Shown here in pieces: positions 13,750 to 58,865 of a stretch of 64,000 bases of DNA. The notes under the pieces are model-generated. The model was not told the DNA's origin and did not search any database. It saw nothing but the letters and a program-made list of their open reading frames with translations. Every line of letters begins with the position of its first letter. Position 1 is the first letter of the stretch. Made by a program: the position numbers and the translations under genes. Source of the DNA: Mytilus galloprovincialis (lineage: Eukaryota; Mollusca; Bivalvia; Mytilida; Mytilidae); the NCBI RefSeq assembly GCF_965363235.1, contig NC_134844.1, forward strand, positions 19,016,646-19,080,645. Reading direction: 5' to 3'.

Positions 13750-14490
13750 CCCAAACTACGATAGTAGAGGGCCATAATTATGTTTCCTGTTCTGTGTGTC
13801 TGTTTGTTCGTCTGTCTGTTCATTCTTCCATTCATTCTTCCGTACTTTCGTTTGTCCGTCCGTTCGTTCATCCATCAGTCTGTCATAGTCCTAGCTCCCT
13901 TTCAATTTTTATAAATTTTAAATTTTACGTTTCCGTGTTATAAAAAGGGAGGATTTTCCAGTTTTCGGACAATAAGTCACAAGTGCTTTGAGCAGATTTC
14001 ATGAAAATTTGTAGAATTGTTTATTTTTATTGACTTAAGCTCCCCTTCGATTTTTATAAATTTTTGATTTTAAGTTTCCAAGTTTATGAGATTTTATTCA
14101 TAAAAAAGGTGGGATTTTCCAGTTTTCGGACAATAACTCAAAAGTGCTTTGAACAGATTTCATGAAACTTTGGTGACTAGTTTATATCTATAAAAATAAC
14201 CTCCCTTTAGTTTTTTTTATAAATTTCTGATATAACATTGAGGAGTAATCAAACTTTATTCGTTGAAAAAGCGACGGGCGTATCATGCGCCCATGGCACA
14301 GCTCTTAATTGATGAAGTTGAAATCCAATCAACTTGAAACTTTGTACAGATGTTCCCTATGATATTGTCTTTCCAACTGTAAAGCCAATTTGAGTTTTGA
14401 ACCCAATTTCACAGTCCACTGAACATAGAAAATGATGGTGCAAGAGGGGCATCAGTGTACTATGGACACATTCTTATTATATGTACCTTT
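13750..14490 (+). repeat. Microsatellite-headed element with two 161-bp units
   Basis: Head: a TCTG/TTCG/TCCG-type microsatellite at about 13797-13885. Then two units spaced exactly 161 bp, judged from ggattttccagttttcggac at 13951 and 14112. Each contains agatttcatgaaa(a/c)ttt. The tail holds gaagttgaaatccaatcaac, a 'cccaatttcacagtccactg' block and 'gtgtactatggacacattct'. The 101-codon frame over the head is a simple-repeat shadow. Confidence 0.75.
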
Positions 14491-14676
14491 GGTTTTAGTT
14501 TCATCATAATCATATTGCAAACTTGGCTGTGTTTACACAACAAATGTAATTTTCCTTAATTTTCAAAATCCAAGGACTACGGGTAATCTCATTGGTTGTA
14601 CACCACAATAAAAATAAAGTTACATCATTGGTTAATTTCCATTTTTAAGATTTTTTTAAACCAATCATAATGTTTT

Positions 14677-14874
14677 GTGTATGCTTTTGAAAAATATCAC
14701 AGCATATTGATAACAAAAAAAACAGTGCAGCTGAAAAAGGCATATATAGATATGGAAAAGTACATTGAATTTTGTATTTCAGAGAATTTACAAGACTATC
14801 CACAACATTCTCATTTTGATGAATTGTTAAACCACAGAAACTTAAAAAAGACCTACAGAAAACCTAGGCTGTAG
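14677..14874 (+). CDS. Unidentified short frame, possibly exonic
   Basis: A 65-codon frame with mixed, charged composition (KKAYIDMEKYIEFC, ending TYRKPRL) is less repetitive than other short frames here. An aaaaaaacag acceptor-like site precedes most of it, and a consensus-like donor (ataag|gtatgtatt) follows about 55 bases after the stop. It could be part of a spliced transcript. I do not recognise a family, and chance is a real alternative. Confidence 0.2.
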   Translation: MYAFEKYHSILITKKTVQLKKAYIDMEKYIEFCISENLQDYPQHSHFDELLNHRNLKKTYRKPRL

Positions 14875-15021
14875 AGTATATACACCAGTATAAAAGAATT
14901 GGCTAGTCGCGTTCATCTATAAGGTATGTATTGGTTGAATATTACATTTCCCCTCATTATTTTTGTTGTTGATGGAGTCAAAAAGCGAGACATAGGTATG
15001 CTGTTGACGGCGACGTCAACA

Positions 15022-15545
15022 ATGTATTAGTTTGTGATTATGTAAGTTGATGGTGAACTGATCAGTCAAAGATATTTAGTACACAGCTGTATTAGCACTA
15101 GCACATTTCATTACCATGGAGATTATTTGGCCCTGCCCCCTCAGTTGTGGTTTTATATTGACTTTTAAACTTTTGCTTAGTTTTCATGTATTAGCTTGTG
15201 ACTATGTAAGTTTATGGGGAACCACTAGTGGTAGGTTAACGATGATTGGTATGTAGTTTTATAAGCATTAGCACCTCTTATTACCATGGGGATTATTTGG
15301 CCCCGCCCCTTCAGTTATGGTTTATTGACTTTTAAATTTTTGCTTAGTTATGTATTAGTTTGATTAGGTCAGTTTATGGGAAACCATTAGTGGTTGGTTA
15401 ATGATAATAGGTCTGCAGTTGTATAAGTATCAGCATATATCATTTCCATGGAGATTATTTGGACCTGCCCCCTCAGTCATAGTCTATTGACTTTTAAACT
15501 TTTGCTTAGTTTGCATGTATTAGTTTGTGATACGGTTGGTTTATA
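15022..15545 (+). repeat. Tandem array, 164-bp unit, just over three copies
   Basis: The unit start atgtattag recurs at 15022, 15186, 15350 and 15515, so the periods are 164, 164 and 165. Each unit includes agcac/atca..., 'ttaccatggagattatttgg', 'cctgccccctcag' and 'attgacttttaaacttttgc'. A small perfect hairpin, gttgacg-gcga-cgtcaac, lies directly before the first unit (15003-15020). Confidence 0.9.
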
Positions 15546-15764
15546 GCAATGATTAAAGATGCATCAAAGAAAACATATGACAATGATGACTCTCTTAGAT
15601 CAACAAAAAAAACCCAACATTTTATAAAAAAACAAAAATAATATAAATTATAAACTTTCCAACCGGTGACCAGGCCAACCAACCAAGATTTATAAAGAAT
15701 GATAAATAATATAGATTTTTAAGTTCCATTCTTTCATATTTATTAAAAAGAAATGATGTTTTAG

Positions 15765-15815
15765 AGGAGCCAACAGCTGAGCAGAGAGCAGAAGAGAGAT
15801 TGATGACCTTGAAGA
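15765..15815 (+). CDS. Candidate coding exon of an unidentified host gene
   Basis: A polypyrimidine-ttttag acceptor is followed by 51 bases and a good donor (gaaga|gtaagc). The only open frame reads EPTAEQRAEERLMTLK, with two bases before and one after the whole codons. This phase fits the start of the exon candidate at 18806, which also needs one base from upstream. Glu-, Arg- and Lys-rich helical composition. I do not recognise the protein. Splicing is inferred from sequence only. Confidence 0.35.
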
Positions 15816-16214
15816 GTAAGCAATGAGAACAGTAAGACAGCTGTTAAGTATATCTGGGGTTACCAAATATTATGGTAAGAACCTCATCTTTAATCAAACT
15901 TGGTGAGTATTCTTTTTGTTGGTTAGATATTATGCATCATTATGAAAAAAGGGGGATGTAGGGTATAAATCAACAAGGCAGCTACCCAATGAAAATAAAT
16001 AACCAAAGACAGGTCTTCAACTATATAACAAACAACAAACTATTTGGAAATCTTGACTCCCCCGCAAGAGAAAAATGTCACTCTTATTATTGAGGAAAAT
16101 GGCCACTACCTCAATGGTCTTTAAAATTAATTCAGTTGCTCTGGTCATTTTTCAAAATTTAACAAGTGAATGGAGTTGTTTTGATGAAGCTTACCTTTAA
16201 TCAATGGGAGATTG

Positions 16215-16430
16215 ATGCGACCACATGGGTCATAATTCTGAAAACTTATCCTGAAATCCTGGGCTTAAAAACTTGAAATCCTGAAGTCCCGAATTTAAAT
16301 AAATTTAAATCCGGACATCCCGAAATTCAAAAAATTAATTCCCGGATCTTAAAAGGGTCAGTCCCGAAATCTCGAGCTTAAAAACACCCAATCCTGGAGT
16401 CCCGATAAAGGTCCTATCTACCCTCATATC
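16215..16430. repeat. 'cccgaaatccc' dispersed repeat, copy 2
   Basis: Blocks 'cctgaaatcctgggcttaaa', 'gaagtcccgaatttaaat', 'cccgaaatctcgagcttaaa' and 'ggagtcccgataaaggtcc' follow the same order as at 3.08 kb. Confidence 0.65.
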
Positions 16431-17420
16431 TATAATTGATAACTAAGATAAAAGAAATACAGAAATTGTTTACATTAAATTGCCTTTTGCCATGCTTTCA
16501 TCAACAAAAGATTTTTTTTTTCATTTTCCAAAATAAATTCCAAGGCTAAGATGTAGGATGCCATTTTTCTAACAAAATACCACAGCATGGAGACCCAAAT
16601 CAGCACACTAAAATGTCCAATGTGTGTCCTACATCTTGAAAAAAATATCATTTTATAAATGTTCAAATATCTTCAAAAACATTTTTTTTTTTTACTCATT
16701 TCTACTCTGTTGAGGCTATTTCACTAGCACTGCACTTTGACTTTGACAATGACTATTAAAGACAAACAAAATGTTTATTGAAGTTGAATTGCCTTAGTGA
16801 TAACTTGGTTGAGGACATGGAAAGCATTTTGTCATTGTTGGTTGTTTTATGGGCTTTGACCTCTTGAGTCATAAAGACCTTATGTATGTTAGTTCCATTG
16901 AAATGTTCAATGCATTGTCAATGCTAAACATTTGATTGACTTTGACTGATTTTTTTTAAGTTTCTGAAGAGTATAAATGAGTTTGAACAAAATGCAGCAT
17001 AACTTTTTCTCCATGATAAGAAGATTTGATTTTAATATTTTCACCAAATTTACTGTTGATAGCATGGCTTATGGTTTGTGCAATACTAGAATATGCTTTT
17101 TTTCACAAGGAGCTTGTCACTTTCTGAGTTTCACTCAAAAACATTAAAGAATCCATCAAATTTGTAAAGCTAAGCTTAAGGTTTGATATGTTACACACAT
17201 AGTAGCTTGAAATTGTTAAAAAAAAATTACTGAATTATCTTGTGTATTTTAGTCAGCTTCCATTCACTTTTTAAAAGTTTGAAAAAATACATTAAGATAA
17301 TTTATTACTTAAAGAGGCATTTGCTATGAAAAAAAAATACAATAACAGCACTTCATTTTTGATAAACATAAATTAAAGCGGAATAATGAAGTAACGACCT
17401 GCAATTAGCAAGTAGATATA

Positions 17421-17606
17421 GGAAGATGTGGTGTGTCGAGTGCCATTGAGACAACTCTCCATCCAAATATCAATTTATGAAAGTAAACCGTTATAGGTCA
17501 ATGAACATCCTTCAACACGGAGCCTTGGCTCACACCGAACAACAAGCTATAAAGGGCCCCAAAATTACTAGTGTAAAACCATTCAAACGGGAAAACCAAC
17601 GGGTAG
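17421..17606 (-). repeat. Relative of family M ('gatgtggtgtg ... cacaccgaacaac')
   Basis: gaagatgtggtgtgtcgagt, ccattgagacaactctccat, aacacggagccttggctcac, accgaacaacaagctataaa and attactagtgtaaaaccatt mark a well-preserved fragment of a mussel repeat that shares its opening block with family M but differs further in. Confidence 0.7.
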
Positions 17607-17874
17607 CAGTCTGTTTAGTTAAATTTTGTAAAAATGAGCTAAAAACTTTGCATATTTATTATTTTTTTCCAAGACTATAATTTAACCTCATTTTGGTCTG
17701 GATGCATGCAACATTTAATAGGAACCATTGTAGTAGAAGGTTGCTCAGCTTGGTCAGATAATAAAAAGAACAGAATGTCAAAATAAAAAAATGAAACAGG
17801 GGAGCCACCGCACACAACAGGTTTGGTGACTGGTTTTTCCAACAAAAAATATGAATCTTACACAAAATTGAAAA

Positions 17875-18335
17875 TAATGTCAGAGAAAACAACCCAACCA
17901 AAGAGCAGAAAACAGCCAAAGGCCACTTATGGCTCTTCAATTCAACCAGAAAATTCAGCATCAGGAGGCAGGCTTCAGCAGGCCCTACACAAAAATGTGT
18001 ACTAGTTCGGTAAAAGTGGATGTCATACTAAACTCAAAAACATAAATGAACTAAAATTAAAAAACATACAAGACTAATACAAAGGCCAGAGGCTTCTAAC
18101 TAGAGACAGGTGCATAAATACAGTGAGTTAAACAGGTTTGAGATCTCAACCCACACCTATACTGCTAGGAGCCAATGTAGAAAAAACAAACACACAGCAA
18201 TTCACACAGTAAAACTCATTTAAAAAGAAGTCTATGTCCCATGTCAGAAAAGGTAACATAATAAACAGACTAACTAAGCCAAATGGCAATAGTTTTGGTA
18301 TTTTTACAGCAGTTACAATGCTAAATTTCATGGAA
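17875..18335 (-). repeat. Diverged copy of the repeat nested in the Harbinger element
   Basis: It shares block order with 8.76-9.00 kb: acaacccaaccaaagagcag, aaacagccaaaggccactta, gtgtactagttcggtaaaag, tggatgtcatactaaactc, aaggccagaggcttctaac. It extends further, to 'gaagtctatgtcccatgtca'. Open frames on either strand are shadows. Confidence 0.65.
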
Positions 18336-19255
18336 AAATAAAGTAAAAAACGTTGATTAAAAAAAAAAAATTAAATTTTGATTTTACTTTAAAGAAAACG
18401 AAATAAAGTTTAATTGATTTTATTCTTATATGTCCGTATGTAATTTTGTATATTTATTTATGTTTCATTTCAGAGTTCACCAACAGATGTTTAATTCTAA
18501 AATTTTGATTTTTGCAGATTGCAGCAGGGAGATGTTACAGTCATAGACCTTGAATAGACTCCGTTGTACTAGACCAGGGAGGGTAGCGCATAGTTTCCGC
18601 AGCACTATACAATAGTAACAAGATCACTCTACCATGAGCTTGTTAAAGGGCCCGTTTGATGAAAGTGACACCAACATTCTCCACAACACTACAGATTTGT
18701 TTTTGCAGATGCAACCGAGGGGATGTTTCAGTCATGGATCCATTTGATGGAAGTGACACCAACGTTCTCCAACACTAATAATTTACAAATTTGTTTTTGT
18801 TTTAGATGCAACCTCAGTCATAGACCCAGAGTATGGCTATGTTGTAACAGATGAAGAAAAGTGGCATATAGATTTCTGTATGTCCATTTCTTTGTATAAA
18901 AGTGACAAATTACTAATCTTTCTTATTTATATCCATTTCAGAGTTCTTACAAAGATGCAGTATAGGTATACAATATTTATTATTTTTGTCTTTTTGTGTG
19001 TTTTTGTCAATGAGAGAAAACATACAGAACAAATCTATCAGAAGTATTAACTGGTGTAATTTGAGACAGAACACCCTGGAACACAAAAAATATCCTACCT
19101 CACAAAATTTAACACGACATCTTATGTTCACCTTTTTCCATTGAAGCAGCACACACAGTGTAATCAAGAATGTATGCATGTCCTTGAACATCTAGAAATA
19201 GAATATCTCTAATAGTAAACAGTCCAGTATAATGATCAACTAGAGCTACACTAAA
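18336..19255 (+). repeat. 920-bp tandem duplication, copy 1
   Basis: Anchors recur 920 bp apart; for example cagagttcaccaacagatgt is at 18471 and 19391. The copies are highly similar, with scattered indels. The unit contains several blocks preceded by pyrimidine-(c/t)ag: 'ttttttgcag|attgcagcaggg', 'tttttgcag|atgcaaccgag' and 'tttgttttag|atgcaacctcag'. Part of the unit is therefore itself a series of related exon-like modules. Confidence 0.85.
18806..18877 (+). CDS. Candidate coding exon in duplication copy 1
   Basis: A tttgttttag acceptor, 72 bases and a donor (atttct|gtatgt). The open frame reads ATSVIDPEYG then YVVTDEEKWHIDF, with two bases before and one after whole codons, matching the phase of the candidate exon at 15765. 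The equivalent block in copy 2 (19725-19797) is 73 bases, with one extra base after 'agaccc', so that copy is out of frame. I do not recognise the protein. Confidence 0.4.
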
Positions 19256-20205
19256 AATAAAGTAAAAAAAGTTAATTTGAAAAAAATATATATTTAATTT
19301 TTGAAATTTACCTCAAAGAAAAGAAAATAAAGTTTAATTGATTTTATTCTTATGTATGTGTAATGATGTATATGTATTTATATTTCATTTCAGAGTTCAC
19401 CAACAGATGTTTAATTCTAAAATTTTGATTTTGCAGATTGCAGCAGGGGGATGTTACAGTCATAGACCTTGAATAGACTCCGTTGTACTAGACCAGGGAG
19501 GGTAGCCTATAGTTTCCGCAGCACTATACAATAGTAACAAGATCACTCTACCATGAGCTTGTTAAAGGGCCCATTTGATGAAAGTGACACCAACGTTCTC
19601 CAACACACTACAGATTTTTTTTTTACAGATGCAGCTGAGAGGATGTTTCAGTCATGGACCCATTTGATGGAAGTGACACCAACGTTCTCCAACACTAATA
19701 ATTTACAATTTTTTTTTGTTGTAGATGCAACCTCAGTCATAGACCCTAGAGTATGGCTATGTTGTAACAGATGAAGAAAAGTGGCATATAGATTTCTGTA
19801 TGTTCATTTCTTTGATGGAAGTGATAAATTACTAATTATTAATTAATTAATTACTTAATTATCCATTTCAGAGTTCTTACAAAGATGTATAGGTATACAG
19901 TATTTATTATTTCTGTCTTTTTGTGTATTTTTGTCAATGAGATAAAACACACAGAAAAGATCAATCAGAAGTATTAACTGGTGTACAAATTTGAGAAAGA
20001 ACACAAGAAATATCCTACCTCACAAAATTTAACACACCAGACTTCTTAATTTTCACCTTTTTTCAATGAAGCAGCACACACAGTGTAATCAAGAAGTTAT
20101 CCATATCCTTGAACATCTTCGAATAGGATATCTCTAATGGTATTTCCATAATATAATCCTCAAAATTCAAACAGTGAGGTATAATGATTAACAAGATCAT
20201 ACTTA
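19256..20205 (+). repeat. 920-bp tandem duplication, copy 2
   Basis: Second copy of the preceding unit. It carries all the exon-like blocks, but its best coding block has a one-base insertion and is frameshifted. Its end has an extra ~40 bp ('tttccataatataatcct') not present in copy 1. The 73-codon frame at 19553 reads across an intron-like poly-T stretch and is not a gene. Confidence 0.85.
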
Positions 20206-20299
20206 AAAAAAGGAGGATACCAAAGGGCCAATCTAAAACCATGTGGTGAAAAAAGACATAACATAAACAAAAGAAGTGACGGAAAATTGTCTACACTGA

Positions 20300-20645
20300 T
20301 AACAAAATATTGTATAGCAACAACCCAACCAAAGACCTGAGAGGTTCTCAGACATCAAGCACCAATCCAACCAAATACCAGGGATGATCTCCAGCACCGA
20401 GCACCAACCAAAACAAAGAACAGGCATGAACTAGGGCAAATAGCACCAACCCAACCAAAGACCTAACAGGTTTTCAGGCACCATGCACCAACCAAACTAA
20501 AGAGCAGGGATGATCTCAGGCACCAAGCACCAACCTTTACAAAGAACAGGGATGATTTCAGGCATAACACACCAACCTTACCAAAGACCAGGAATAATCT
20601 CAGTCACCAAGCACCAACAAAAAAAGGGTGATCCCAGGCACGACA
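20300..20645 (+). repeat. Degenerate tandem repeat, 'caccaacccaaccaaagacc' motif
   Basis: About seven irregular units of roughly 40-60 bp contain accaac(c)aaccaaa, 'agcaggga/tgatctcaggc' and 'accaagcaccaac'. The array is diverged and irregular. The minus-strand frame across it is a shadow. Confidence 0.65.
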
Positions 20646-21119
20646 GAATGGTAGCAAGTATTTGATATGTTAACTTATATACTTATTGTTTAAGTTAAAT
20701 GTTTTTTTTTTTCATTCTTTGCTCTATTTTTTCTATGAAAAATTGTCAAAATCATACATGAATTTTTTATGTGTTTTTTCATCTCTCTCTTCAAAATATT
20801 TTACTTAATATAATAGGTAAATAATTTCTTGAATAGAAAAAAATTGGAAATGTTAATTTTCTTTAATCAATGAATGAAAAAAGAAATGTTCAAACCTTTT
20901 TCATGCATAACCAAATTATTAAATGTGTTAAATAAAAGATTATAAATAACAAATTTCTATATTTTTTGGAGTAAATTAAGATATGCTTCTAAGAATTTTT
21001 ACAATTGAAATGTTCCAAAATTTAATAATGTATCTTTTTTTACAGAAAATATAAGGTAAAATAACAAATAATGACTCGGGTTTACATGAAAACACTGATA
21101 TCTTGAATGACAGTAGCAT

Positions 21120-21236
21120 AGGTGGATCCAGGGAGCCTTGCCCCCCCCTTTTTTATGGGAAGATTATATAAGGAATCACTGTAGCATGGCTGGAGCGGGC
21201 CCCCTCATGAAAAGATATGGATTCGCCACTGAGTAG
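21120..21236 (+). repeat. 'ggatcc ... ggattcgccactga' dispersed repeat, copy 2
   Basis: tggatccagggagccttgcc, a C-tract, 'tatataaggaatcactgtag', 'tggctggagcgggccccctc' and 'ggattcgccactga'. It matches the 12.02-kb copy, with a similar interior but a shorter head. Confidence 0.75.
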
Positions 21237-23925: not shown

Positions 23926-23929
23926 ATAC

Positions 23930-41345: not shown

Positions 41346-42070
41346 ACATGTCGCACCGTAACTTGAGAACGACTTATCCAAATTTCATGAAACTTAACAT
41401 AGTTGTTTCTTATGATGGTCAAATGATCTGTATACTTTTTGGTGAAAATAAGATTAAACCCTTTTGAGTAACGGCACTTTGTAACTAAAACAAGGGTGTG
41501 TTTTTTTACACATGTCGCACCGTATCTCAAAAACGATTCTTGATTATGGCTTAAAACTTTAAACACTTCTTAGTTATATTAATCTTAATATCTGTATACT
41601 TTTTGGTGATGATTCAAAATTTTATTTTTGAGTTATTGAGTATTTTGTAAAAAAGGGGGAGTTTTTTTTTACATGTCACACCATATCTCAAAAACGATTT
41701 ATGATTATTACTTAAAACTTTACACATGTCTTTGTTATATTAATCTAAAGATCTGTATACTTTTTGGAGATGATTCAAAATTTCATTTTTGAGTTATTGA
41801 GTATTTTGTAAAAAAGGGGGAGGGTTTTTTTTACATGTTGTGCCGTATCTCAAAAACAATTTATGATTATTGCTTAAAACATTACACACTTTTTTGTTAT
41901 ATTAATCTAAAGATCTGTATACTTTTTGGTTTTGATTCAAAATTTAATTGTAGTGATATTTAGTTTTAAAAAAAAAACAGGGTTGGGGTTTTCACATGTC
42001 TCGCCGTGTCTCAAAAACAATATATGGTTATTGCTTAAAACTTTCTCAGAAACTATTTATGATTATTGCA
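41346..42070 (+). repeat. Tandem array, ~162-bp unit, about 4.5 copies
   Basis: The unit start acatgt(c)(g/a)c recurs at 41346, 41510, 41671, 41833 and 41994 (spacings 164, 161, 162, 161). The first unit reads cgtaacttgagaacgac then ccaaatttcatgaaacttaa. Later units read 'cgtatctcaaaaacgatt ... gattattgcttaaaacttt ... atctgtatactttttggtg'. Confidence 0.9.
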
Positions 42071-42234
42071 TAAAACTTCCACACAAGACGTCGGGCGTAT
42101 CATGCGCTGTTTATTATTCCTGTGGTCATACTGCTGTTGTTATGCTCCCACCGTATTGAGTTTTATCCTTGTTCTGCTGTAAGTATGTATGTTCTTCCCT
42201 TACTTGTACGTACATGTACCTCCGTACATCCCAA

Positions 42235-43060
42235 AATTCGTTTCTGTTCTCTTACTTTAGTTTGCCTGAACCAAATTGTATGAAACTTATACGCAATGCT
42301 TATAACCACAATTCACAAGTCAAGTGAATTTTAGTTGCGTCACTTTTACCATTCTAGCATTTTATGCTACTTTACAAAAAGCAAAGTTGCTTGAAATTTT
42401 AGTTTCTGTTCTCTAACTTTAGTTTGTCTTAACCAAATGCTATGAATCGTATACACAATGCTCATTACCACAAACACTGATCAAGTTTGAATTTTGGTGG
42501 CGATAGTTATACCATTTTAGAGTTATGCCCCTTTACATATGTAAAAAATTGCTTACTATTTTCGTTTCAGTTATCTAACTTCAGTTCGCTCAACCAAATG
42601 TTATGAAATTTATACAGTGTTAATACTTTTAACAATAAAACAAAGATCAGTCTTGAATTTTGGTGGAGTAATTTTTACTGCTCTAGGGTTGTGCCTCGTT
42701 ACAAATGGAACCAGATGCTCCGCTGGGCACATCTTTATACGACCACAGAGGTCGAAACCCTGAACAGTTGGCGCAAGTATGGACACAACATTCAAGCTTG
42801 ATATAGCTCTGAATTTGGATTGCGATCAAATTTTTGACATAAAATTAATATATAGGTTTCTGACACAAAACAAATGTCAAGATCTAACAAATCTATTGCG
42901 CAATACTACATGTAATTAGAATGTATACACAATGCTTATTACCCCATAACTCAGATCAAGTACACATTTTGGTAGCGTCATGCACATTTACAGTTCTTGA
43001 GTTGTGACCCTTTATAACATTAATGCTAGCGGGGGGCATCATTTGTGTCCCATGGACACG
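42235..43060 (+). repeat. Tandem array, 162-bp unit, about four copies plus tail
   Basis: The anchor actttagtttgcc recurs at 42254, 42416 and 42578 (exactly 162 and 162), followed in the first unit by ccaaattgtatgaaacttat. Later parts are interrupted by a tail with 'gggcacatctttatacgacc', 'acagttggcgcaagtatgga' and 'tgcgatcaaatttttgac'. A final partial unit lies at about 42.92-43.02 kb. An inverted copy of the tail is at 59.2 kb. Confidence 0.88.
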
Positions 43061-43139
43061 TTCCCTATTTTAGATAAAAGCCTTTAATATAAATTCACTT
43101 TCATTACATTTGTATTGATTTAAGTTACTGTAACTGTCT

Positions 43140-43689: not shown

Positions 43690-44720
43690 TTTTGATGAGC
43701 CTGCGACTTTTGTCACAAAAAGCTCGACATAGAGATAGTGATCTGGTGGCGGCAGCGGTGTTAGCTAACTTCTTAAAAGCTTTATATTTTAGAAGGTTGA
43801 AGACCTGGATGCTTCATACTTTGTATATAGATGCCTCATGTTACGAAGTTTCCGTCAGTCACATGTCCAATGTCCTTGACCTCATTTTCATGGTTCAGTG
43901 ACTACTTGAAAAAAAAGTTAAGATATTTTGTAATGTTAAATTCTCTCTTATTATTAGTAATAGGATAACGATATTTTGTATGTGCGTACCTTGCAAGGTC
44001 CTCATGCCCGTCGACAGTTTTCACTTGACCTCGACCTCATTTCATGGATCACTGAACAAGGTTAAGGATTGGTGGTCAAGTCCATATCTTAGATATTATA
44101 AGCAATAGGTCTTGTATATTCGATATATGGAAGGACTATAAGGTGTACATGTCCAACTGGCAGTGTCATCTGACCTTGACCTCATTTTCATGGTTCAGTG
44201 GTTATAGTTAAGTTTTTGTATTTTGGTCTGTTTTACTTATATTGTATGCAATAGGTCTACTATATTTGTTGTATGGAATAATTGTAAGGTGTACATGTCT
44301 AGCGTGCAGGTGTCATCTGACCTTGACCTCAGTTTCATGGTTCAGTGGTAAAAGTTAAGTTTTTGTGTTTTGGTCTTTTTTTCTAACACTATATGCAATA
44401 GGTCAACTATATTTGGTCAGTCACATAGGTTTTATTTGACCTTGACCTAATTTTCACGGTTCATTGCTCAGTGTTTAGTGTTTTTGTGTTTTGGTGTGTT
44501 TTTCTTAAACTATAAGCAATAGGTCAACTATATTTGTTGTATGGAAGAATTGTTAGCTGTACATGTCTGCCTGGCATGGTTCATTAGTCAATGTTTAATT
44601 TTCTTGGTTAATGTTAAGTTTATATGACAGTTGTAACAAAGCTTTATATTTAGGACTATCAACATAATATTAATGATTGGTAAAGAAGGCGAGACATTTC
44701 AGCGTGTGCACTCTCTTAGA
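43690..44720 (+). repeat. ~1-kb element with ~147-bp internal tandem units
   Basis: Head 'gatgagcctgcgacttttgt' and 'agctcgacatagagatagtg', then units around 'ccttgacctcattttcatgg', 'ttcagtggtt', 'tttttgtgttttggtct', 'ctata(t/a)gcaataggtc' and 'gtaaggtgtacatgtc'. The unit start is at 44171 and 44318 (147 bp), then 44437 (119 bp, a deleted unit). Tail 'gtaaagaaggcgagacattt' and 'cagcgtgtgcactct'. It looks nearly full length. The 69-codon frame in the head is a shadow. Confidence 0.8.
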
Positions 44721-45600: not shown

Positions 45601-45611
45601 ATAGCTTTTTT

Positions 45612-48175: not shown

Positions 48176-48179
48176 GGTC

Positions 48180-48240
48180 ACGGGCGGCCGGGCGGTCGGG
48201 CAGTCGGGCGGTCGGGCAGTCGGGCGACCTGGCGGGCGGC
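48180..48240 (+). repeat. GC-rich minisatellite, 'gggcggtcgggcagtc' units
   Basis: About six units of cgggcggtcgggcagtcggg-type sequence, a sharp GC island in AT-rich DNA. It lies directly before the 161-bp array. Confidence 0.9.
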
Positions 48241-48245
48241 AATCA

Positions 48246-48890
48246 AATGTTGTCCGTGCATTAACTCATGAACCGTTCAACCAAAGCTTTTAAAATTTTA
48301 ATATGTTGTTACTGACAACTAAATGAAGGTCAAGTTCAATAATGGCGATTTTGACTTTTACCGTTCAGGAGTTATGGTTCTTGAAAGATTCAAAAATGGA
48401 GTTTCCAGTCGTGTTCGTGCATTTACGCATGAACTGTTCTACCAAAGCTTCCCAAATTTTAATATGTTGTTACTGATGACAAAATGGAGGTCAAGTTCAA
48501 TAATGACGATTTTGACTTTTACCGTTCAGGAGTTATGGTTCTTGAAAGATTGAAAAATGGAGTTTCCAGTTGTGTCCGTGCATTTACGCATGAACTGTTC
48601 TACCAAAGCTTCCCAAATTTTAATATGTTGTTACTGATGACAAAATAGAGGTCAAGTTAAATAATGACGATTTTGACTTTTACCGTTCAGGAGTTATGGT
48701 TCTTGTAAGATTGAAAAATGGTGTTTCCAGTCGTGTCCGTGCATTTTCTCATGAACCATTCAACCAAAGCTTTTGAAATTTTTATATGTTGTTACTGATG
48801 ACAAAATAGAGGTCAAGTTCAATAATGACGATTTTGACTTTCACCATTCATCAGTAATAGTTCTTGTGATATTGCCAGGACACAAATAAA
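48246..48890 (+). repeat. Tandem array, 161-bp unit, four copies
   Basis: gtttccag recurs at 48401, 48562 and 48723 (exactly 161 each), and 'gt(c/t)cgtgcatt' shows the same spacing from 48248. Units contain 'cgtgcatttacgcatgaac', 'accaaagctt', 'atatgttgttactga' and 'aggagttatggttcttg'. Copies are close to each other. The 76-codon frame here is a repeat shadow. Confidence 0.92.
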
Positions 48891-48984
48891 TATTAATAAA
48901 TCCGGTTTGCTGTCGTTGTGACAGCCTCTTGTTGCACATCTTATACTGATAATTATTTTGCAGTTTAAAGTATAATTTATAACT

Positions 48985-49215: not shown

Positions 49216-49584
49216 TAAACTAAATATACCTAAATTTTTGTTTCATAATTGTTTGAGACCGAAAGCTTCTGGATTAGTTTTTTGATGATGAATTTCTCCA
49301 AAAATTCTTTTTGATAAACTTTTCTCATATTTGACTACTATTATGATTTGGACATTAACGTATACAGTGGTATTCATCTTTGATAGACCTAGTGCTACAA
49401 TTTAATAGGTAAACAAAGAATATGAACACAGGAATATCCATCCAGAACACAAAATCAGTACATAGACAGCATAAATAAACGAACAAAAGAAAGGAACAGT
49501 GCTTTTATTGCTGTTCTTCATCTTATACATAATCAATTTGCACAAAATTTATCATTTTCACTCAAAAGTTTGAATAAGTTTTAA

Positions 49585-50900: not shown

Positions 50901-51229
50901 AGAGCTCGTCGAGAGGAACATTTTATACGCTATATAGTTAAGGTTTTTTGTACATTTTGATTTATTTTATCAGATGATTTTTTTGTATGTTGTAAGGACA
51001 ATTTTCTAATGGTTCTTGTCTGTGATCTATTTATCACATTGCATGGATCTAAATAAGAAAAATTTATATGAAAAGTTTGCTAATTTGAGTTTCCAGCACC
51101 ATTTGATCAACATTTATTTTTCATGATTTGTTCTGTTCTCTGTCTGTTTATCAGATTCTTTAGGCCAACAATGTCAACAATGTATGGTGTACTCTGAGAT
51201 GGTGTACAGAATGATTGTAATGTGAATAT

Positions 51230-52190
51230 GATTTCCTAATGAGTAACCCCTGACCTTGGCCTTATTTTGATGTGTTGTCAACATTTACTTTTTATATGAC
51301 TGCAAAACTTTTACGGTCTTATAATTATATAGCTATGTCCTCATTGTGGTCTGTAGACATATGTTTTCCAGACAATAACTTGAGTATAAGTTTATATATC
51401 TGAATGAAATAGAACCACAAGTTTCCATACCCAATAAAATGGTATGGATTGATTTTAGGGTTATTGTCCTAACAGTTTAGCAATAAAAGGCAAAACAAAA
51501 AAGGATTTTCCTGTTTCCAGACCATAACTTTAGAATAATTTATTATACTCATGGACTTTTATCAAATTGTCATACAAGATTTCAAACCAAAAAAGCAATG
51601 TTGGAATTGATTTTGGTGGTTATTGCCCAAACCATTTAGGAATTAAGAACCAAACATGCACCAATACTTTGTATAAATTACTTACCTCTTGACCATTTTA
51701 AACTTTAATGAGAATAGTCTTGTATTCTTTGGGTTTTTTAATATGCTGAATCTGTGACCATGTTTTGTGTATTTAGATTTTAGATTTTGGGCCTTGTTTT
51801 AGAAATGGTCCACAATCGGGTCCAAAATTAATCTTAGTTTGATTTTTTTTTTGTTAAAATTTTGGATTTTGGAATTCTGACCCTGTTATTAAACTGGTTC
51901 ACATTGAGGTCCAAAGGGTAAAAAATAAAGTTTGTTTCAAACCAAAAATTGAATTCTTGTGGTTCTTTGATATGCTGAATCTTTTGGATATAGGATCCTG
52001 TTATCAAACAGGTCCACATTGAGGTCCAAAGGGTCCAAAATAAAACTTCAAAATTTAAATTAATTTGGTTTAAAGTTGCAACAGACAGGGTTTATCTGAA
52101 ATTGACCTTATATTTTCATGGGTCATTGATATCGTAAATGTTCTGTTATACCTATATTAAAACCTGCATTATTGGTCTTAGACTTTCAAC
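51230..52190 (+). repeat. Composite repeats: 'ccttggccttatttt' fragment and family A copy 2
   Basis: 51.23-51.30 kb is a fragment of the 43.7-kb family. 51.46-52.06 kb follows family A: 'ccagaccataactttagaat', 'gattttggtggttattgccc', 'tttaggaattaagaacc', then units with 'aggtccaaagggtccaaaat' and 'tttgatatgctgaatc'. Confidence 0.65.
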
Positions 52191-52234
52191 ATAGAATTTA
52201 ATTTTCATCAGTTTTCAACATATTTGTCTAGTAC

Positions 52235-52620
52235 AAAGCAGGGTTAATAGTCATGTTATCATCCTTAAATATGCATATTTATTTACAGCTGAATTTTAAG
52301 CAGCCAATACCCATCCATCATCAGTGAGGGGGGCAAGGGGTTTAACTGTTATGCTGTTATGAGGCAATTTAATTCTTTGTTATCTGTTATTCTGAAAATA
52401 TATTTACTGTTAGCTGTTATTGTCTTACTCTTTGTTAGCTGTTATAGGACTATTATTTATTTTGTTATCTGTTATTGTAAGAATGTATTTGCTGTTAACT
52501 GTTATTGAAATTGGAATTTTAGCATTTTGAGAGCCAATCATCAGTAGAAATTGAAGATAATTGAACATTGTGGAGAGTTGTCTCATTGGCACGCATACCA
52601 CATCTTCTTACAATGTATAT
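52235..52620 (+). repeat. Composite repeat with 'tgttatctgttatt' units
   Basis: 'aaagcagggttaatagtca' and 'aaatatgcatatttatttac' (the 34.57-kb tail) are followed by 'gggtttaactgttatgctg', several ctgttatctgttatt-type units (52.35-52.52 kb) and a family M end ('gtggagagttgtctcattgg ... accacatcttctta'). Confidence 0.65.
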
Positions 52621-54798
52621 CTGTTTGGGGTCTTTCTACTAGTAATATGGTGGTCCTGTATTTGCAGAAGGATTTCAATAATATGTCACATAAACATATT
52701 TTAAACATCAGTTGGACCTAGGACAATTCCAGTATAAATTATAATTATTATCCTTTGTAATAAATTCCATTGTCTGTGAACATGTATCATTTTCTACAAA
52801 GGAGTAGGTTCAGTAAGACCCCTTTTTGGCCCCAAAATACAGCAGTTTTACAAAATTGTTAAAATGTAAACTTTTAGCTATTCATTTGAAAGTAGAATGC
52901 TTCTGCCACATAAATATGGGCTGTTTTTTGACAATACAATGTACATATATCGGGTACAAGTCATGCTAAATTACTGAAATCGTCATAAATTTAGCATTTC
53001 AGTTAAATTTTAGACGGTTTCCATCTTTTAAACGAAAGTGGCCGCATGCGTGTTCATTCATAATATTGAAATGTAAGTTGTATTTGATGATAATACATAA
53101 CCACTGTGTATCATCGCCACCGGAAATTGGGTACTACATTGTACATCCTAACGAAGCGGAGAGAAATAGAAAACAAGTTGCTTTCTTTAAAAAAAAAGAA
53201 AAGCAATACATGAACCTATGACTGCTGACTGCCGGGTCACCAAAATATTGTTGCTGAATTTGTGTTTATTTTATTTATTACTTTGGAATGTACATAATTT
53301 TTCAGATTATAACCCTTTGGCAAATCCTGATTTCTACTAACCGGATGACTTATGCAAATTGCACAATTTAACTATCGCAATTTAAATTTATGCAGTTTTG
53401 CTTTATAATCTGAAATTCTGGATGCATTTATTTTAACTATCATATCTTTATATTTTGTTTCCTACATGAATGCCTATATGTTCTCAACTCGTATTTGAAG
53501 CTGTCTTTACTCATGGTAGATGTTGTATGCGGTGAGACCTGTGACATGCAATTGATTTAGAACTCTTATGAAGAGACTTATTTTGGTCTCATAAAACATC
53601 TTGAATTTTAAGGATTTCCTGATTTTACAGGGAAACTTAGTTTTGCTGAAGAATTTATTAATTCAGATGTTTATGAATACCTGTACACACTTTTAAAATA
53701 ACCAATTTATATAAAAAGGTATGTAGATATAAAAAGATACCAGAATTAAAACGATGTACGCCAGACACGAGTTAAAGTCTACAAAAAAAGCATCAGTGAT
53801 GCTTGAATGAAAAAAGTTGAAAGGCGGCTAAATACATTAAAAAGTTAAGGAATCTATTCCTTGGATAGACAATCCTTTGCTTTTCGAAAAGGTCAAAGTT
53901 TATTATAGAACAGTGACTCAAAAAAGAAACAAAAGAGAAACAACTCGAGGTTAGAATACCGTTAGTAATGATGACCGTGCTTGAAAGTCACATGTGAAGC
54001 TCTTTCTACCGTGTCCTGGATTTATGGATAACAAAAACGAAAAATGTGATCTATAATGTGAATGAATCAAGACGTGAAGGATAGTTGGTCAACACAGTGA
54101 ATACAATTTTCAAAACAGTACCATAGTACAAATATGAAGATGCTATAAGGTTAAACTATTAAAACAAACAAACAAAAATTGAATTAAAATTTTATAATAA
54201 ACTAACGTTCCTGTTAGTATTTTTTTTTTTCAAATTCTTTTGAATATATATAATATCAATAAACAAGAACGTCAAGTATTTACGGATGGACATTTTATTT
54301 ATCGAATGAATCTATTTTTAAATTCTAACATTCCACTTAGTGCATGAATATATTACTACACAAACTATAAGCAAAGACTTCTAAATCCATACTAAAACAG
54401 TATAAAATAATCAACATTAATATAATTGTAATTAAATTTTGTTGTGATTATTTTAAATCATTTTACGGTTGCTGTGAGCTGCAAGGATTTAAAATCATGC
54501 TTTATGATTAGAAAACACACAAGTATTTTTATTCACGACCGTTTAAAATTTAAATATTGAATAAATTTACCTTACTTTCCGTTTTATGGATATATTACAA
54601 TACAAAAAAAATAATAATTACTCATAAAAGTTAAATACTAAAATGGTATGAAATCATTAACGTAGAAATATAATAATTATTTTTTATAAACATTTTTTTT
54701 TGTAGGATGCAAGAATTTATTTTAGATTTAATTTTTATGTTTCCTTTACAAATGAATATTTAAATATACCAAAGCAGAGTATATTGTCATATACAATA
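52621..54798. other. Mostly featureless DNA
   Basis: 52.80-53.17 kb ('ggttcagtaagacccctttt', 'gacggtttccatcttttaaa', 'gtggccgcatgcgtgttc') resembles a mussel dispersed repeat. The rest is AT-rich DNA with nothing I can support. Confidence 0.45.
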
Positions 54799-55904
54799 CT
54801 TACTAGAACACACCCGCGAAATCGCGGGCATTCAGAGCGTAGTTTAAAGTATGTAAAGTGTTGTTGGAATAATTTTGTAAAATACTGAATGACTGGAGAA
54901 TTTCAGCAAAAGTATCATAAGTCATAGGTTATTGGGGACAGGAAAATGTGTTTATTTTTGGTTTTCTATCAATTTCAATATGAACATACATTTAGTATGT
55001 TATGAACTAAAGTGTTGTTGGAAGAATTTTGTAAAATACTGAATGACTGGAGAATTTCAGCAAAAGTATCATAAGTCATAGGTTATTGGGGACAGGAAAA
55101 TGTGTTTTTTTTTTATCCCTCCACCTTATTTCCAAAGTTTCTAATTTTTGTTTTTCTATCAATTTCAATATGAACATACATTTAGTATGTTATGAACATT
55201 CAAGTAAGGAGCCTGTAATTCAGTGGTTGTCGTTTCTTTATGTGTTACATATTTATTTTTTTGTACATAAATAAGGCCGCTACGATGACCTATAGTTGTT
55301 AATTTCTGTGTCATTTTGGTCTCTTGTGGAGAATTGTCTCAACATGGCAATCATACCACATCTTCTTTGTTTTTGTAATCAATGAATTTTGTAAAAGATG
55401 GAATTTCAGAAAAGGTATCAAAAGTTCACATGAATAATTTTAGCGCTTATCTGTATATTATGAACATTCATTACTATATAAATAAAGTGTATTTACTTTC
55501 AATTCTAAGTTTACTAATCGATCTATGGTGGTGATTGATATAGTATACAGACCCTCTCTGTTTAATAAACTCTGTGACCACCGTGGATAGTTAACTTGAA
55601 AATGATAGCAGATAAAATTCTGAAAATACACTTTATTCGTAGTATATGTATGTTCAAAGTATAAAGAAAAACGCAAACCGGAAGTCTAATCTGACTTAAA
55701 ATTTCGTCCAATGACGGGACAATATCCGGATGCCTTTTTTTCTCGTTTTTCTCCCAAAATAACTCAATCTGAATAATCATATGAATGGATGACAAATGCG
55801 ACTATGCACTGTACCTATAGGACACAGAGGCGTGTTAATTAATTTATTGTGGAAAGAAGAGAAGCGACACCCAAAATGAGGTCTTCTCGTTTAATAGTAT
55901 AGAT
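54799..55904 (+). mobile_element. Interspersed element with CCCGCGA hairpin head, copy 2
   Basis: It starts cttactagaacacacccgcg; the perfect hairpin CCCGCGA-AA-TCGCGGG is at 54813-54828. It ends ggtcttctcgtttaatagta then tagat, as copy 1 does at 3.99 kb. A ~150-bp block ('gtgttgttggaataattttg ... gacaggaaaatgtgttt') is duplicated inside it, and a family M fragment is nested. No real gene. Confidence 0.65.
55195..55370 (+). repeat. Family M fragment nested in hairpin element copy 2
   Basis: 'aaggagcctgtaattcagtg', 'gttgtcgtttctttatgtgt', 'tacatttttgtacataaataaggccg'-like blocks, 'gacctatagttgttaatttc', 'cttgtggagaattgtctcaa' and 'accacatcttctt'. It is internally deleted compared with other copies. 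Confidence 0.75.
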
Positions 55905-55984
55905 TTCTTAATTGTAACTCTGAAATATTCTGATTTCAATCATTGTAAGTTTCTTCAGAAACATAAATACTGTACATATTTCGT

Positions 55985-56220
55985 ATATATGAGGGCCCTC
56001 ATGGGGTTTTTGATTATGTGATTACTTGGCCGTTTTTTTAATGATTATTTGATTATTAAGCCAAATATTTCATGATTATTTGATTACCTAGGACTGTATT
56101 TTTAGTTTATGATTATTTGATTACTAAAGATAAGCAAATATTTAATGATTATGTGATTATATTGGCAAAAAAATGGTGATTATGTGATTACTAGGACCCC
56201 CCCATGAGGGGCCTCATATA
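55985..56220. mobile_element. MITE with 'tatgagg(g)cccctcatgggg' inverted ends
   Basis: The left end tatatgagggccctcatggg pairs with the inverted right end (cccatgaggggcctcatata). The interior is made of gattat(g/t)tgattac repeats in one orientation. The terminal TATA could contain a TA target duplication. No coding capacity. Confidence 0.8.
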
Positions 56221-56484
56221 TTTCTTTGATTCCAATTGAATTAAATACTTTTGATAAGAATATTACCTGTTTTCCGATCTAATATTAATATTTTAACCAG
56301 AATGTTCTCTCCCGCTATAAGTCTATGATGAAATACACAGTATCCCGTGGTTAAATCTTCAAACATAATTAGTTTACATGTTATCGAGTCAACAGACAAT
56401 ACCACGTTATAATTGACCCAGATAGTATCATACACACAGCGTACAGTATGGAACGCCATCACTGCCTTATAAGACGAAACTACT

Positions 56485-57005
56485 TTGACATGATGCAAAT
56501 GTTGCTTACATGATGTGAATTCTTCATTACATGATGTGAATTCTTCTTTACATGATGTGAACTCTTCTTTACATGATGTGAACTCTTCATTACATGATGT
56601 GGTTTCCTCTTTACATGATGTGAATTCTTCATTACATGATGTTAATTCTTCTTTACATGATGTGAACTCTTCATTACATGATGTGAATTCTTCATTACAT
56701 GATGTGATGTGAACTCTTCATTACATGATGTGAAAACTTCATTACATTACACGATGTGAAAACTTCATTACATTATGTGAAAACTTCATTACATGATGTG
56801 AAAACATCATTACATAATGTGAAAAGTTCATTACATGATGTGAAAACGTCTTTATGTGATGTGGTTGTTTCATTACATGATGCGAAACTTTCTTTGTGTG
56901 CCGTTAAAATAAAAACCCTTGTACATGATGCGAATACTTTAGTGTATGATGTGAATGTTGCAGTACGTGATGCTAGAACTGCATTACCTGATGTGAACGT
57001 CACCT
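56485..57005 (+). repeat. 21-bp minisatellite array (tacatgatgtgaa...), left arm
   Basis: More than 20 units of about 21 bp (ttcattacatgatgtgaaaac / ttctt). They are most uniform at 56.51-56.71 kb and increasingly diverged towards 57.0 kb. Because 21 is a multiple of three, the array is open in several frames (repeating SLHDVNS or SLHDVKT). I treat these frames as passive. The same array appears inverted at 63.75-64.0 kb. Confidence 0.93.
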
Positions 57006-57029
57006 TATAATTATACGTTATGTAAATTG

Positions 57030-57260
57030 TTTAATGAGACCATTTAAGGGTTCAAAACTTGATAGAAGCGTGCTTTGTGTTTTTTTATTATTAGGTTCGG
57101 CCGTTTTCGGTATTCTGGTGCTCCATAACTCCTTAACCGAAATCTGTGCCCTATATTCACTATAAACGTTTTGTTGCACAGTCCATAGGCTTGTTAAGGA
57201 TATATAGGATTTAATTATAATTAGGCCATTCAAGGGTTCAAAACTTTATAGAAACGTTCT
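57030..57260 (+). repeat. Two-copy ~186-bp direct repeat
   Basis: 'ccatttaagggttcaaaact' at 57041 and 'ccattcaagggttcaaaact' at 57227, each continuing tgatagaa(g)cg / ttatagaaacg. Other similarity between the units is weak. Confidence 0.55.
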
Positions 57261-57381
57261 TGGTGGTATATTTTTATGGTAATGCTATTGTAACAGAGGG
57301 GGTCGGTGACGACACCTCCCGGGACGTGTAGTTGCCAGTATTGCGTCCCTATTTGACCATCGGGACACCTGATGTCAGATT

Positions 57382-57456
57382 ATGGCTGAACAACAGACAA
57401 TTCATCCACAAATGTGCAATAATTGCGGACAAACGAGAGTCAAAAAACTTTCTTAA
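57382..57456 (+). CDS. Very short frame with Cys-x2-Cys, doubtful
   Basis: A 24-codon frame, MAEQQTIHPQMCNNCGQTRV and four more codons, follows a GC-richer stretch ('cacctcccgggacgtgtagt'). It could be a first exon or chance. No family recognised. Confidence 0.12.
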   Translation: MAEQQTIHPQMCNNCGQTRVKKLS

Positions 57457-57639
57457 ATGAAGTTCAAAAATAGAGTTTTCAAATGTAAAATGAAAAATAA
57501 AATGTTCCCAGAGTTAGTCTTTAGTAAAGTAAATTGGCTTCGCGTTGTGTTTTCAGTAGTAAAATTGCACCAAGAAGAGGTGACTAACTCAGCGAACTGC
57601 ACCGAGGTGACTAACTCTAAACTCAAGTGGACTGATACA

Positions 57640-57905
57640 GTCCGGCGAGTATTTGAAGCCTATACAAAGCCGACTCCGACTGAAAAACAATTAAAATCCT
57701 TATATTTTTTTGCAGAGTTATGGCCCTTGGACTTTGAAATTCACTCAGATAATTGGTTTCCACACTTTGTTTTTTTTTTAAAGATATTGACTTAAAATTT
57801 GGCATATAGTAAAACCATGACAAGTTACAGATCAAGTGCGAATTGTGTTCCGGTCTGTTGATTTTTTACAAAGTTATGGTCCTCGAATTGAAAATTTGTT
57901 GGTCG
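57640..57905 (+). repeat. 'gagttatggcccttggactt' repeat fragment
   Basis: 'tgcagagttatggcccttgg', 'ataattggtttccacacttt', 'accatgacaagttacagatc' and 'aaagttatggtcctcgaatt' form two rough units. It runs directly into the family A copy. Confidence 0.6.
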
Positions 57906-58865
57906 TATATTGGTATCACGTTGGTGTCAGCGTCGTCGTCGTCGTCGTCGTCCGAATACTTTTGGTTTTCGCACTATAACTTTAGTGTAAGTGCATAGAA
58001 ATCTATGAAATTTTGACATAAGGTTTATGACCACAAAAGAAAGGTTGGGATTGATTTTGGGAGTTTTGGTTCCAACTGTTTAGGAATTAGGGACCAAAAA
58101 AGGGCCCAAATAAGCATTATTCTTGGTTTTCGCACAATAACTTTAGTATAAGTAAATATAAATCAATGAAATTTAAATACAAGGTTTATGAACACAAAAG
58201 GAAGGTTGGGATTGAGTTTTGGTCCCAACAGTCTAGGAATAAGGGGCCCAAAGTGTCCAAAATTTAACTTTGTTTGATTTCATCAAAAATTGAATAATTG
58301 GCGTTCTTTGATATGCCGAATCTAACTGTGTATGTAGATTCTTAACTTTTCGTCTTGTTTTCAAATTGGTCTACATTAAAGTCCAAAGGGTCCAAAATTA
58401 AACTAAGTTTGATTTTAACAAAATTTAAATTCTTGGGTTCTTTGATATGCTGAATCTAAACATGTACTTAGATTTTTGATTATGGGCCCAGTTTTCAAGT
58501 TGGTCCGGATCCAAAATTATTATATTAAGTATTGTGCAATAGCAAGGAATTTTCAATTGCACAGTATTCAGCAATAGCAAGAAATCTTCAATTGCACAGT
58601 ATTGTGCAATAGCAAGAAATTTTCAATTGCATAGTATTGCGCAATAGCAAGAAATCTTCAATTGCACAGTATTGTGTAATAGCAAGTATTTTCAATTGCA
58701 CAGTATTGTGCAATAGCAAAAAATCTTCAATTGCACAGTATTGTGCAATAGCTAGTATTTTCAATTGCACAGTATTGTGCAATAGCAAGAAATATCTAAT
58801 TGCACAATATTGCGCAATAACAAGAAATTTTCAATTGGAGTTATCTTTCTTTGTCCTGAATAGTA
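57905..58865 (+). repeat. Family A element, copy 3, with (CGT)n head and palindromic tail
   Basis: Order: a CGT trinucleotide run (57931-57952); two units 161 bp apart (ttggttttcgcac at 57962 and 58123); two 'gtccaaagggtccaaaat'-type units (58.24-58.50 kb); a 35-bp palindromic array (58.54-58.83 kb); and an end block 'caattggagttatctttctt'. It is the most complete of the three family A copies here. Confidence 0.8.
58540..58830. repeat. 34-36-bp tandem array with a 20-bp near-palindrome per unit
   Basis: About eight units, each carrying attgcacagtattgtgcaat (a near-perfect inverted repeat) and then agcaagaaat(c/t)ttca. Unit starts lie at 58590, 58626, 58660, 58695 and 58729. Both strands give periodic shadow frames of 66-77 codons. 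Confidence 0.92.

What the first reader, a model, noticed from the sequence alone, without database searches (positions are those of the whole stretch)
13797..58300. Several unrelated-looking repeat families share 161-164-bp units and one degenerate core
I measured unit spacings of 161 bp (13.95 kb), 164/161/162/161 (41.35 kb), 162/162 (42.25 kb), 161/161 (48.25 kb) and 161 (57.96 kb). Within each unit an 'a(a)cttt(a/g)ag-like' block is followed by a related core: ccaaatttcatgaaacttaa (41378), ccaaattgtatgaaacttat (42271), accaaagctttt (48280), atctatgaaatttt (58001), agatttcatgaaactttg (14155). About 15-20 bases later comes a tta(t)tga-type block. The flanks and families otherwise differ. This looks like one ancient nucleosome-length satellite that has repeatedly been captured by, or has founded, different mobile repeat families. 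A 160-bp satellite conserved across bivalves (BIV160) is known; whether these are its relatives is untested.
Basis: partly seen in the sequence, partly recalled or inferred. Interest (0 to 1): 0.72.

Follow-up and report, generated by a model that had tools for sequence, protein, structure and literature searches.

The report
Helentron families sharing one repeat unit
Five different-looking repeat families in this stretch of an animal genome carry versions of the same ~160-base unit, and at least one version is a built-in part of a gene-carrying rolling-circle jumping element, so the repeat probably travels as part of the element instead of being picked up from elsewhere.

Summary
The 161-164-bp arrays at 13.9 (A), 41.3 (B), 42.2 (C), 48.2 (D) and 58.0 kb (E) are there. 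Their units are homologous over nearly the whole length, in one phase: a profile from four families finds the fifth at 25-44 bits, with 0 of 1000 shuffles reaching it (a B mid-unit gets only 4.3 bits, 1 of 1000). The unit contains a decayed 47-bp inverted repeat.

The carriers look like HINEs (non-autonomous Helentrons), known from bivalves with ~160-bp central repeats. New here: of 22 gene-carrying Helentrons whose 3' flank I read, one ends like A/B and one like D. The D-type autonomous element has D-type units just upstream of its gene region and half a unit before its 3' end. The array-gene junction is present in 3 of 4 long copies, itself included. Six gene-less places keep autonomous DNA beside the array, as deletion derivatives would.

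So for D the unit is a component inherited with the Helentron, not a captured satellite; for A, B, C and E this is inferred. BIV160 kinship is untested beyond two primers. No ~10-bp periodicity was found. Novelty: new variant of a known kind.

The parts
13797..13885 (+). Family A: GTCC/GTCT-type microsatellite before the array
   Evidence: sequence
13893..14273 (+). Family A array: one partial unit (profile 75-159) and two units, 161-bp step
   Evidence: profile hits
14273..14306 (+). Family A 3' end: GACGGGCGTATC subTIR and hairpin, shared with B and with autonomous L088/L091
41246..41337 (+). Family B 5' end (first part lost in this copy) and GTCC/GTCT microsatellite
41351..42073 (+). Family B array, units of 161-164 bp, last ones degenerate
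42087..42115 (+). Family B 3' end, hairpin partly deleted in this copy
42109..42245 (+). Family C 5' part; boundary about 42107-42109 by comparison with three other copies
   Evidence: L096-L098
42246..42708 (+). Family C array, three units, 162-bp step
42709..42897 (-). Separate repeat lying inside family C; three copies elsewhere start at 42701-42715 and end at 42895-42897 of this sequence
   Evidence: strand inferred
42928..43017 (+). Family C terminal half unit (profile positions 50-135)
   Evidence: 12.0 bits, E 0.005
43025..43064 (+). Family C probable 3' end: GCGGGGGGCAT and hairpin GTGTCC-CAT-GGACAC
   Evidence: sequence by eye; similar end in L059
48181..48239 (+). Family D CGGG-type microsatellite; this copy lacks the 5' end box
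48254..48857 (+). Family D array, 161-bp step
48890..48933 (+). Family D 3' end: AAATCCGGTT subTIR and hairpin; matches autonomous L084/L092
51371..51651 (+). Older E-like units (11.8 and 26.8 bits)
57931..57952 (+). Family E CGT microsatellite
57968..58248 (+). Family E array, 161-bp step
15084..15527 (+). 162-bp array with no detectable kinship to the shared unit (negative control, not a member)

Best explanation
The five families are HINEs or HINE-like remnants: non-autonomous Helentrons (rolling-circle elements) with, 5' to 3', a terminal box, a microsatellite, a tandem array of one homologous ~160-bp unit, often a partial unit, and a 3' subterminal inverted repeat plus hairpin. The unit is an old component of this Helentron lineage and is inherited with the element. 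In the D lineage the gene-carrying element itself has an array of units upstream of its gene region, and half a unit between the genes and its 3' end; non-autonomous copies arise by losing the genes, which leaves the array. They are then copied in trans by the autonomous Rep-helicase-endonuclease protein, which should recognise the shared 3' end. Arrays lengthen or shorten by replication slippage or unequal exchange, which homogenises units within a family while families diverge. Shown: unit homology and phase; the inverted repeat inside the unit; shared 3' ends with autonomous elements for A, B and D; for D, the array beside the gene region and the half unit at the 3' end. Inferred: that A, B, C and E arose the same way; that the protein acts on these ends; that the inverted-repeat halves are recognition sites.
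For: Leave-one-family-out profiles 25-44 bits, 0/1000 shuffles. Alignments run round the whole unit in one phase, 61-70% identity over aligned bases among A-E; 41-59% between families in the multiple alignment. Genome-wide copies of A, B, C and D. HINE anatomy in the consensus of B and D; A shares B's 3' end. 28 of 30 D copies have TT right after the 3' end as I placed it. PF14214 Rep: 138 matches in the genome; one of those elements (L069) also has PIF1 helicase and an endonuclease domain, and L088 an endonuclease domain. Of 22 autonomous 3' regions read (L069-L090), L088 matches the A/B end (B 43 bp 95%, A 38 bp 95%) and L084 the D end (46 bp, 87%); the best of 92-132 other 45-mers of the same regions has 28-30 matches against 37-41 at the ends. 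Second copies L091 and L092 stay 98.2% identical up to that end and then diverge; a third candidate, L093, does not match. L084 605-762 matches D's last part-unit plus 3' end at 74-77% in D copies, and 155 bp at 90% in L054 (the half unit exceeds 500 of 500 shuffles). L099, contiguous with the D-type gene region, holds D-type units (80 and 32 bits); this junction is present in 3 of 4 long copies, itself included. Six places match L099 up to position 354 and show the half unit 97-104 bp further on.
Against: No unit is detectable in the last 355 bp before the 3' end box of the A/B-type autonomous element (full-region profile scan also empty before the end), and its 5' end was not read. 20 of 22 autonomous 3' regions match none of the A/B/D ends, though the 1.4-kb stretches may stop short of some ends. 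E has no defined ends here and C no identified 5' subTIR. The window copies of B and D lack part or all of the 5' box. The autonomous D element could secondarily have gained units from a HINE by recombination. The fourth long D-type autonomous copy (C7) matches L099 only at 522-938; a fifth, partial one (C5, 80%) is not in the scored list. The six gene-less places were not read, only located.
Confidence: 0.7

Rival explanations
1. One reading: an old free satellite (BIV160-like) was captured several times, independently, by different mobile families.
For: Units are homologous while ends differ between {A,B} and D. Independent incorporation is the published reading for some oyster Cg_HINEs with related ends but unrelated repeats (PMC7492417, results and first part of discussion read).
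Against: A D-type autonomous Helentron already has units beside its genes and half a unit at its 3' end. In B, C, D and E the first unit scored in the window starts at profile position 1-4, as inherited structure would; the window copy of A starts inside a unit (position 75). No long free array was noticed, but only about 360 kb of this genome was looked at.
Confidence: 0.15
2. The unit spreads between Helentron lineages by recombination or template switching among HINEs, so units and ends have different histories; the autonomous D element received its units from a HINE.
For: No unit in the A/B-type autonomous 3' DNA tested; different arrays side by side at 57.6-58.5 kb.
Against: In the D lineage unit parts sit on both sides of the genes, and the HINE tail aligns in line with the autonomous 3' end.
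Confidence: 0.2
3. Convergence: 160-bp length is favoured by nucleosomes and A+T-rich units look alike by chance.
For: Arrays without detectable kinship also have this length (15.08 kb, L040); oyster papers state that 160-180 bp predominates (PMC7492417 results; PMC8268682 passages).
Against: 0/1000 dinucleotide shuffles in leave-one-out tests; same-length F15 does not match; periodicity not above shuffles.
Confidence: 0.03

Closest known systems
Cg_HINE elements of Crassostrea gigas (PMC7492417)
   Same: End boxes with subTIR, microsatellites (GTCY, GTCC, GTCK in several), short arrays of ~165-bp units, 3' subTIR and palindrome, TT target, no TSD found there.
   Different: That paper calls repeats of several groups unrelated and could not relate autonomous Helentrons to its HINEs. 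Here units of families with different ends are homologous, and autonomous relatives are located for A/B and D.
Pearl elements CvA/CvE/CvG, DTC84 and MgE of Mytilus galloprovincialis (seen only as cited in PMC7492417, PMC5139131, PMC11136912)
   Same: Up to six ~160-bp core repeats in a modular element.
DINE-1 and HINE-Mo with their Helentrons (PMC4067079, passages)
   Same: Non-autonomous elements sharing end structures with Rep/helicase/endonuclease Helentrons; deletion derivatives.
   Different: Here parts of the tandem array itself are present in an autonomous element, on both sides of its genes; whether that is so there I did not check.
BIV160 / Cg170 satellites (PMC5139131, passages)
   Same: ~160-170-bp monomer with two conserved segments, related to repeats of CvA.
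   Different: BIV160 primers find nothing in the window; the full monomer was not compared.

Membership tests
HINE (non-autonomous Helentron) | 5' and 3' subterminal inverted repeats | tested here: met
   D consensus AACCGGATTT / AAATCCGGTT, perfect; B ATACGCCCGTC / GACGTCGGGCGTAT, a two-base insertion plus one base apart at most. A 5' box degenerate; C 5' and both E ends not found.
HINE (non-autonomous Helentron) | hairpin near the 3' end | tested here: met
   A, B, D consensus; C by eye; E not found
HINE (non-autonomous Helentron) | microsatellite followed by central tandem repeats | tested here: met
   A, B, D, E; no clear microsatellite in C
HINE (non-autonomous Helentron) | insertion at TT/T-rich site without duplication | tested here: inconclusive
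   TT after the 3' end in 28 of 30 D copies; T runs belong to the consensus ends; duplication and empty sites not analysed
HINE (non-autonomous Helentron) | ends shared with an autonomous Rep/helicase/endonuclease element | tested here: met
   3' ends only, A/B and D. Last 60 bp by global alignment: B 47, A 49, D 51 matches in 62-63 columns; A and B fall just under the 80% subfamily rule of PMC4067079, but the ends were cut 1-2 bp out of register. Helicase of L084/L088 not read. C, E not tested.
BIV160 satellite | monomer sequence similarity | tested here: inconclusive
   two primers, 46 of ~160 bases, no match at up to 3 mismatches in the window
Pearl / MgE element | sequence of the published element | not testable with these tools
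   sequence not held
Nucleosome-phased satellite | ~10-bp AA/TT periodicity or phased chromatin | tested here: inconclusive
   periodicity not above shuffles (72/300); chromatin data not available
Self-cleaving ribozyme repeats (retrozymes) | hammerhead ribozyme | tested here: not met
   no Rfam family reaches its gathering score in the window; other loci not scanned

The most novel reading that the evidence does not exclude
The two inverted halves of the unit are a second, internal pair of subterminal inverted repeats of these Helentrons: the left half belongs to the 5' side and the right half to the 3' side of the genes. Loss of the genes brings them together as one ~160-bp dyad unit, which can go tandem because extra copies of a Rep-recognition (iteron-like) site favour copying. 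This would explain why differently ended HINEs carry the same unit, in the same phase, with a length set by two half-sites and not by nucleosomes.
Probability: 0.3. Interest if true: 0.75.

Novelty: new variant of a known kind. Interest (0 to 1): 0.58.

Why it matters
Short ~160-bp arrays scattered through bivalve genomes are often discussed as satellites picked up by mobile elements, and the oyster HINE paper read here could not link an autonomous partner. Here autonomous relatives are named by coordinate, the repeat is shown to be part of one of them, and differently looking repeats turn out to be homologous. That makes capture versus inheritance directly testable by tree comparison, and suggests a concrete role (protein recognition sites) for a repeat whose length is usually explained by nucleosomes.

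Tried and rejected
Rejected or unsupported: chance similarity (shuffles); nucleosome-type periodicity; known RNA families in the window. Compensatory change between the two inverted boxes was looked for and is weak: mean 10.6 of 16 complementary within families, 9.1 across families, with one across-family pair reaching 16; single units are mostly not above shuffles. Only the joint 47-bp test over families is clear (6.58 against a largest null of 4.14 in 600 permutations); its nulls permute alignment columns and do not model relatedness.

Against a simple picture: 34 of 190 pairs exceed z 2.3 forward but also 11 in reverse (one is L003-L036, the same family in opposite orientation; A-E reverse is 5.6), perhaps because the unit is itself a decayed inverted repeat and T/A-rich; the pairs include two consensus variants each of A, B and E.

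L081's profile hit is an E-like fragment in an apparent intron, not a 3' end, and was not counted. L091's minus-strand hit (18.5 bits, 1079-1036) starts at and runs beyond the element end and was not used. L059 carries a half unit and a C-like 3' end; the 40 scored relatives (of 1227 candidates) lie at least 16 kb from every Rep match by my comparison of coordinates, so it is not shown to be autonomous. The 15.08-kb array, L040, L045, G147, W582, W501 and L002 do not match the profile; L066a and L003/L036 are not significant; L066b is borderline (1/300); L008 (168 bp) matches (7.4 bits, 0/300).

Not done: family E was not searched in the genome (one search did not complete and I did not repeat it); 5' ends of the autonomous elements were not reached; empty sites were not analysed. 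In one search the consensus used 14 of 30 A, 14 of 30 D and 8 of 8 B loci; one search aligned all 68 but in mixed orientation and was discarded. Unit spacing used only plus-strand hits above 25 bits and steps under 260 bases.
Full report
WHAT WAS CHECKED. Tandem Repeats Finder lists arrays at 41.5, 42.2 and 48.3 kb with periods 161-162, but not those at 13.9 and 58.0 kb; a profile finds all five with steps of 161-164 in 10 of 10 cases.

ARE THE UNITS RELATED? I took consensus units of A, B, C, D and E (two variants each for A, B and E) and 12 other consensus units picked from the arrays (11 families, since L003 and L036 are one). In pairwise circular alignment 9 of the 10 pairs among A-E exceed dinucleotide shuffles (z 2.9 to 12.8, best variant); A-E does not, and has a reverse match of z 5.6. 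The alignments run round the entire unit and agree in phase. Leaving out one family at a time, the profile of the others scores A 39.1 and 27.1 (middle and first unit), B 43.6 (first unit) and 4.3 (middle unit), C 35.5, D 25.8, E 25.5 bits; no shuffle of 1000 reaches these except one for the B middle unit. Because units were rotated to a common start before profiling, phase agreement is partly built in; full-length collinearity is not. Of the other families only L008 (168 bp) clearly matches, so the profile is selective; an array of 162 bp at 15.08 kb does not match. The six-family profile gives 20 hits in the window (filters off) and 331 in 68 loci (default filters) at E<0.1, and none in shuffled copies of the same DNA (default filters).

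INNER SYMMETRY. Across the seven aligned units, positions 6-52 resemble the reverse complement of 78-124 (50% against 28% expected; 0 of 300 permutations in each of two controls). The unit thus has a left and a right half around a centre, plus a linker. In single units this is mostly not significant.

WHAT CARRIES THEM. Copies found genome-wide (candidates of the first look: B 2757, D 1634, A 2128, C 4632; only 40 of each scored) show, in the consensus of B and D, the anatomy of HINEs. D: AACCGGATTT near the 5' end, CGGG-type microsatellite, array, AAATCCGGTT, hairpin. B: ATACGCCCGTC with its inverted copy, GTCC-type microsatellite, array, GACGTCGGGCGTATC, hairpin; A shares B's 3' end. The 39 best D copies are 95-99% identical to the window copy, so recently multiplied; the 39 best A copies are 77-91%.

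AUTONOMOUS RELATIVES. A Rep domain (PF14214) search gave 138 matches, with open frames up to 3163 codons. I read DNA beyond the Rep domain in 22 elements (L069-L090). Two match: L088 (C10) ends with the A/B 3' end and L084 (C14) with the D 3' end. Second copies agree up to that point and then diverge: L088/L091 98.2% over 1040 bp, L084/L092 98.2% over 763 bp; a third candidate, L093, does not match. This makes it unlikely that a HINE merely landed there. Pfam finds PIF1 helicase and an endonuclease in L069, one of the 138 Rep elements, and an endonuclease in L088; the 99-residue piece of L084 gave no Pfam match.

THE UNIT INSIDE THE AUTONOMOUS ELEMENT. L084 605-762 aligns with D's last part-unit plus 3' end; the half unit (profile 49-135) scores 23.1 bits and exceeds 500 of 500 shuffles. 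The left half is not detectable there (113 of 500 shuffles at or above). Upstream of the gene region, L099 contains one full unit (80 bits), part of another (32 bits) and a start of a third (8 bits), in the same orientation, followed by element DNA. The search with L099 finds the junction in C14 itself and in two C11 copies (94-95%); a fourth long copy (C7) matches only beyond it, and a fifth, partial copy (C5) is not in the scored list; the C14 array continues upstream to 65811388 with a 151-bp step. Most other scored places match only the array part. Six of them match up to L099 position 354 and show the half unit 97-104 bp further on, too close to hold the genes (distances computed from its coordinates; the DNA was not read). 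These look like internal-deletion derivatives. The array's last piece in L099 has the left half followed by linker-like sequence and then unique DNA, so the gene region does not interrupt a unit at one clean point.

READING. The most economical account is a Helentron lineage that has long carried this unit, diversified its ends and units together, and shed gene-less copies that keep the array. It is shown for D only. A and B share the autonomous 3' end, but no unit was found in that element's 3' DNA and its 5' end is unread. C and E rest on unit homology and partial anatomy. The recognition-site role of the halves is a proposal.

LITERATURE. From PMC7492417 I read the results and the first part of the discussion; from PMC5139131, PMC4067079, PMC8268682, PMC11136912 and PMC12818792 passages only. 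PMC7492417 states that repeats of some Cg_HINE groups are unrelated and that none of 10 autonomous elements found in Repbase could be related to Cg_HINEs. Listings in which I saw no title on mussel HINE-autonomous pairs: 20 of 114; 12 of 174; the pearl, MgE and BIV160 originals were not among them, so this does not show that it is unpublished.

After holding the report against the calls, confidence in the best explanation went from 0.72 to 0.70, because the window copy of A does not start in the common phase and the 1.4-kb stretches may miss some autonomous ends.

Noticed in passing
L071, L072, L075, L076, L083, L086: Six of the 22 autonomous Helentron 3' regions read have their own tandem arrays after the open frame (periods about 34-185 bp; short 30-bp arrays elsewhere not counted); the six-family profile does not hit them.
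   Followed up: no
window 57690-58505: Different arrays follow each other (an L066a-like ~160-bp unit by eye, E units, a 134-bp unit), like the double-array oyster HINEs.
   Followed up: partly
window 43871-44536; L041, L020: A 147-bp dispersed array family with a TGACCTTGACCTCA motif; no match to the profile.
   Followed up: partly
window 14330-14480; L003, L036: A family with 169-184-bp units in the loci and its own GGGGCATC..GTGTACTATGGACAC-type 3' end by eye, perhaps another HINE lineage, adjacent to family A.
   Followed up: no
A loci L039-L068: Some A arrays have steps of 85 (7 of 61) or 149 bp (6 of 61); the first is near half a unit.
   Followed up: no
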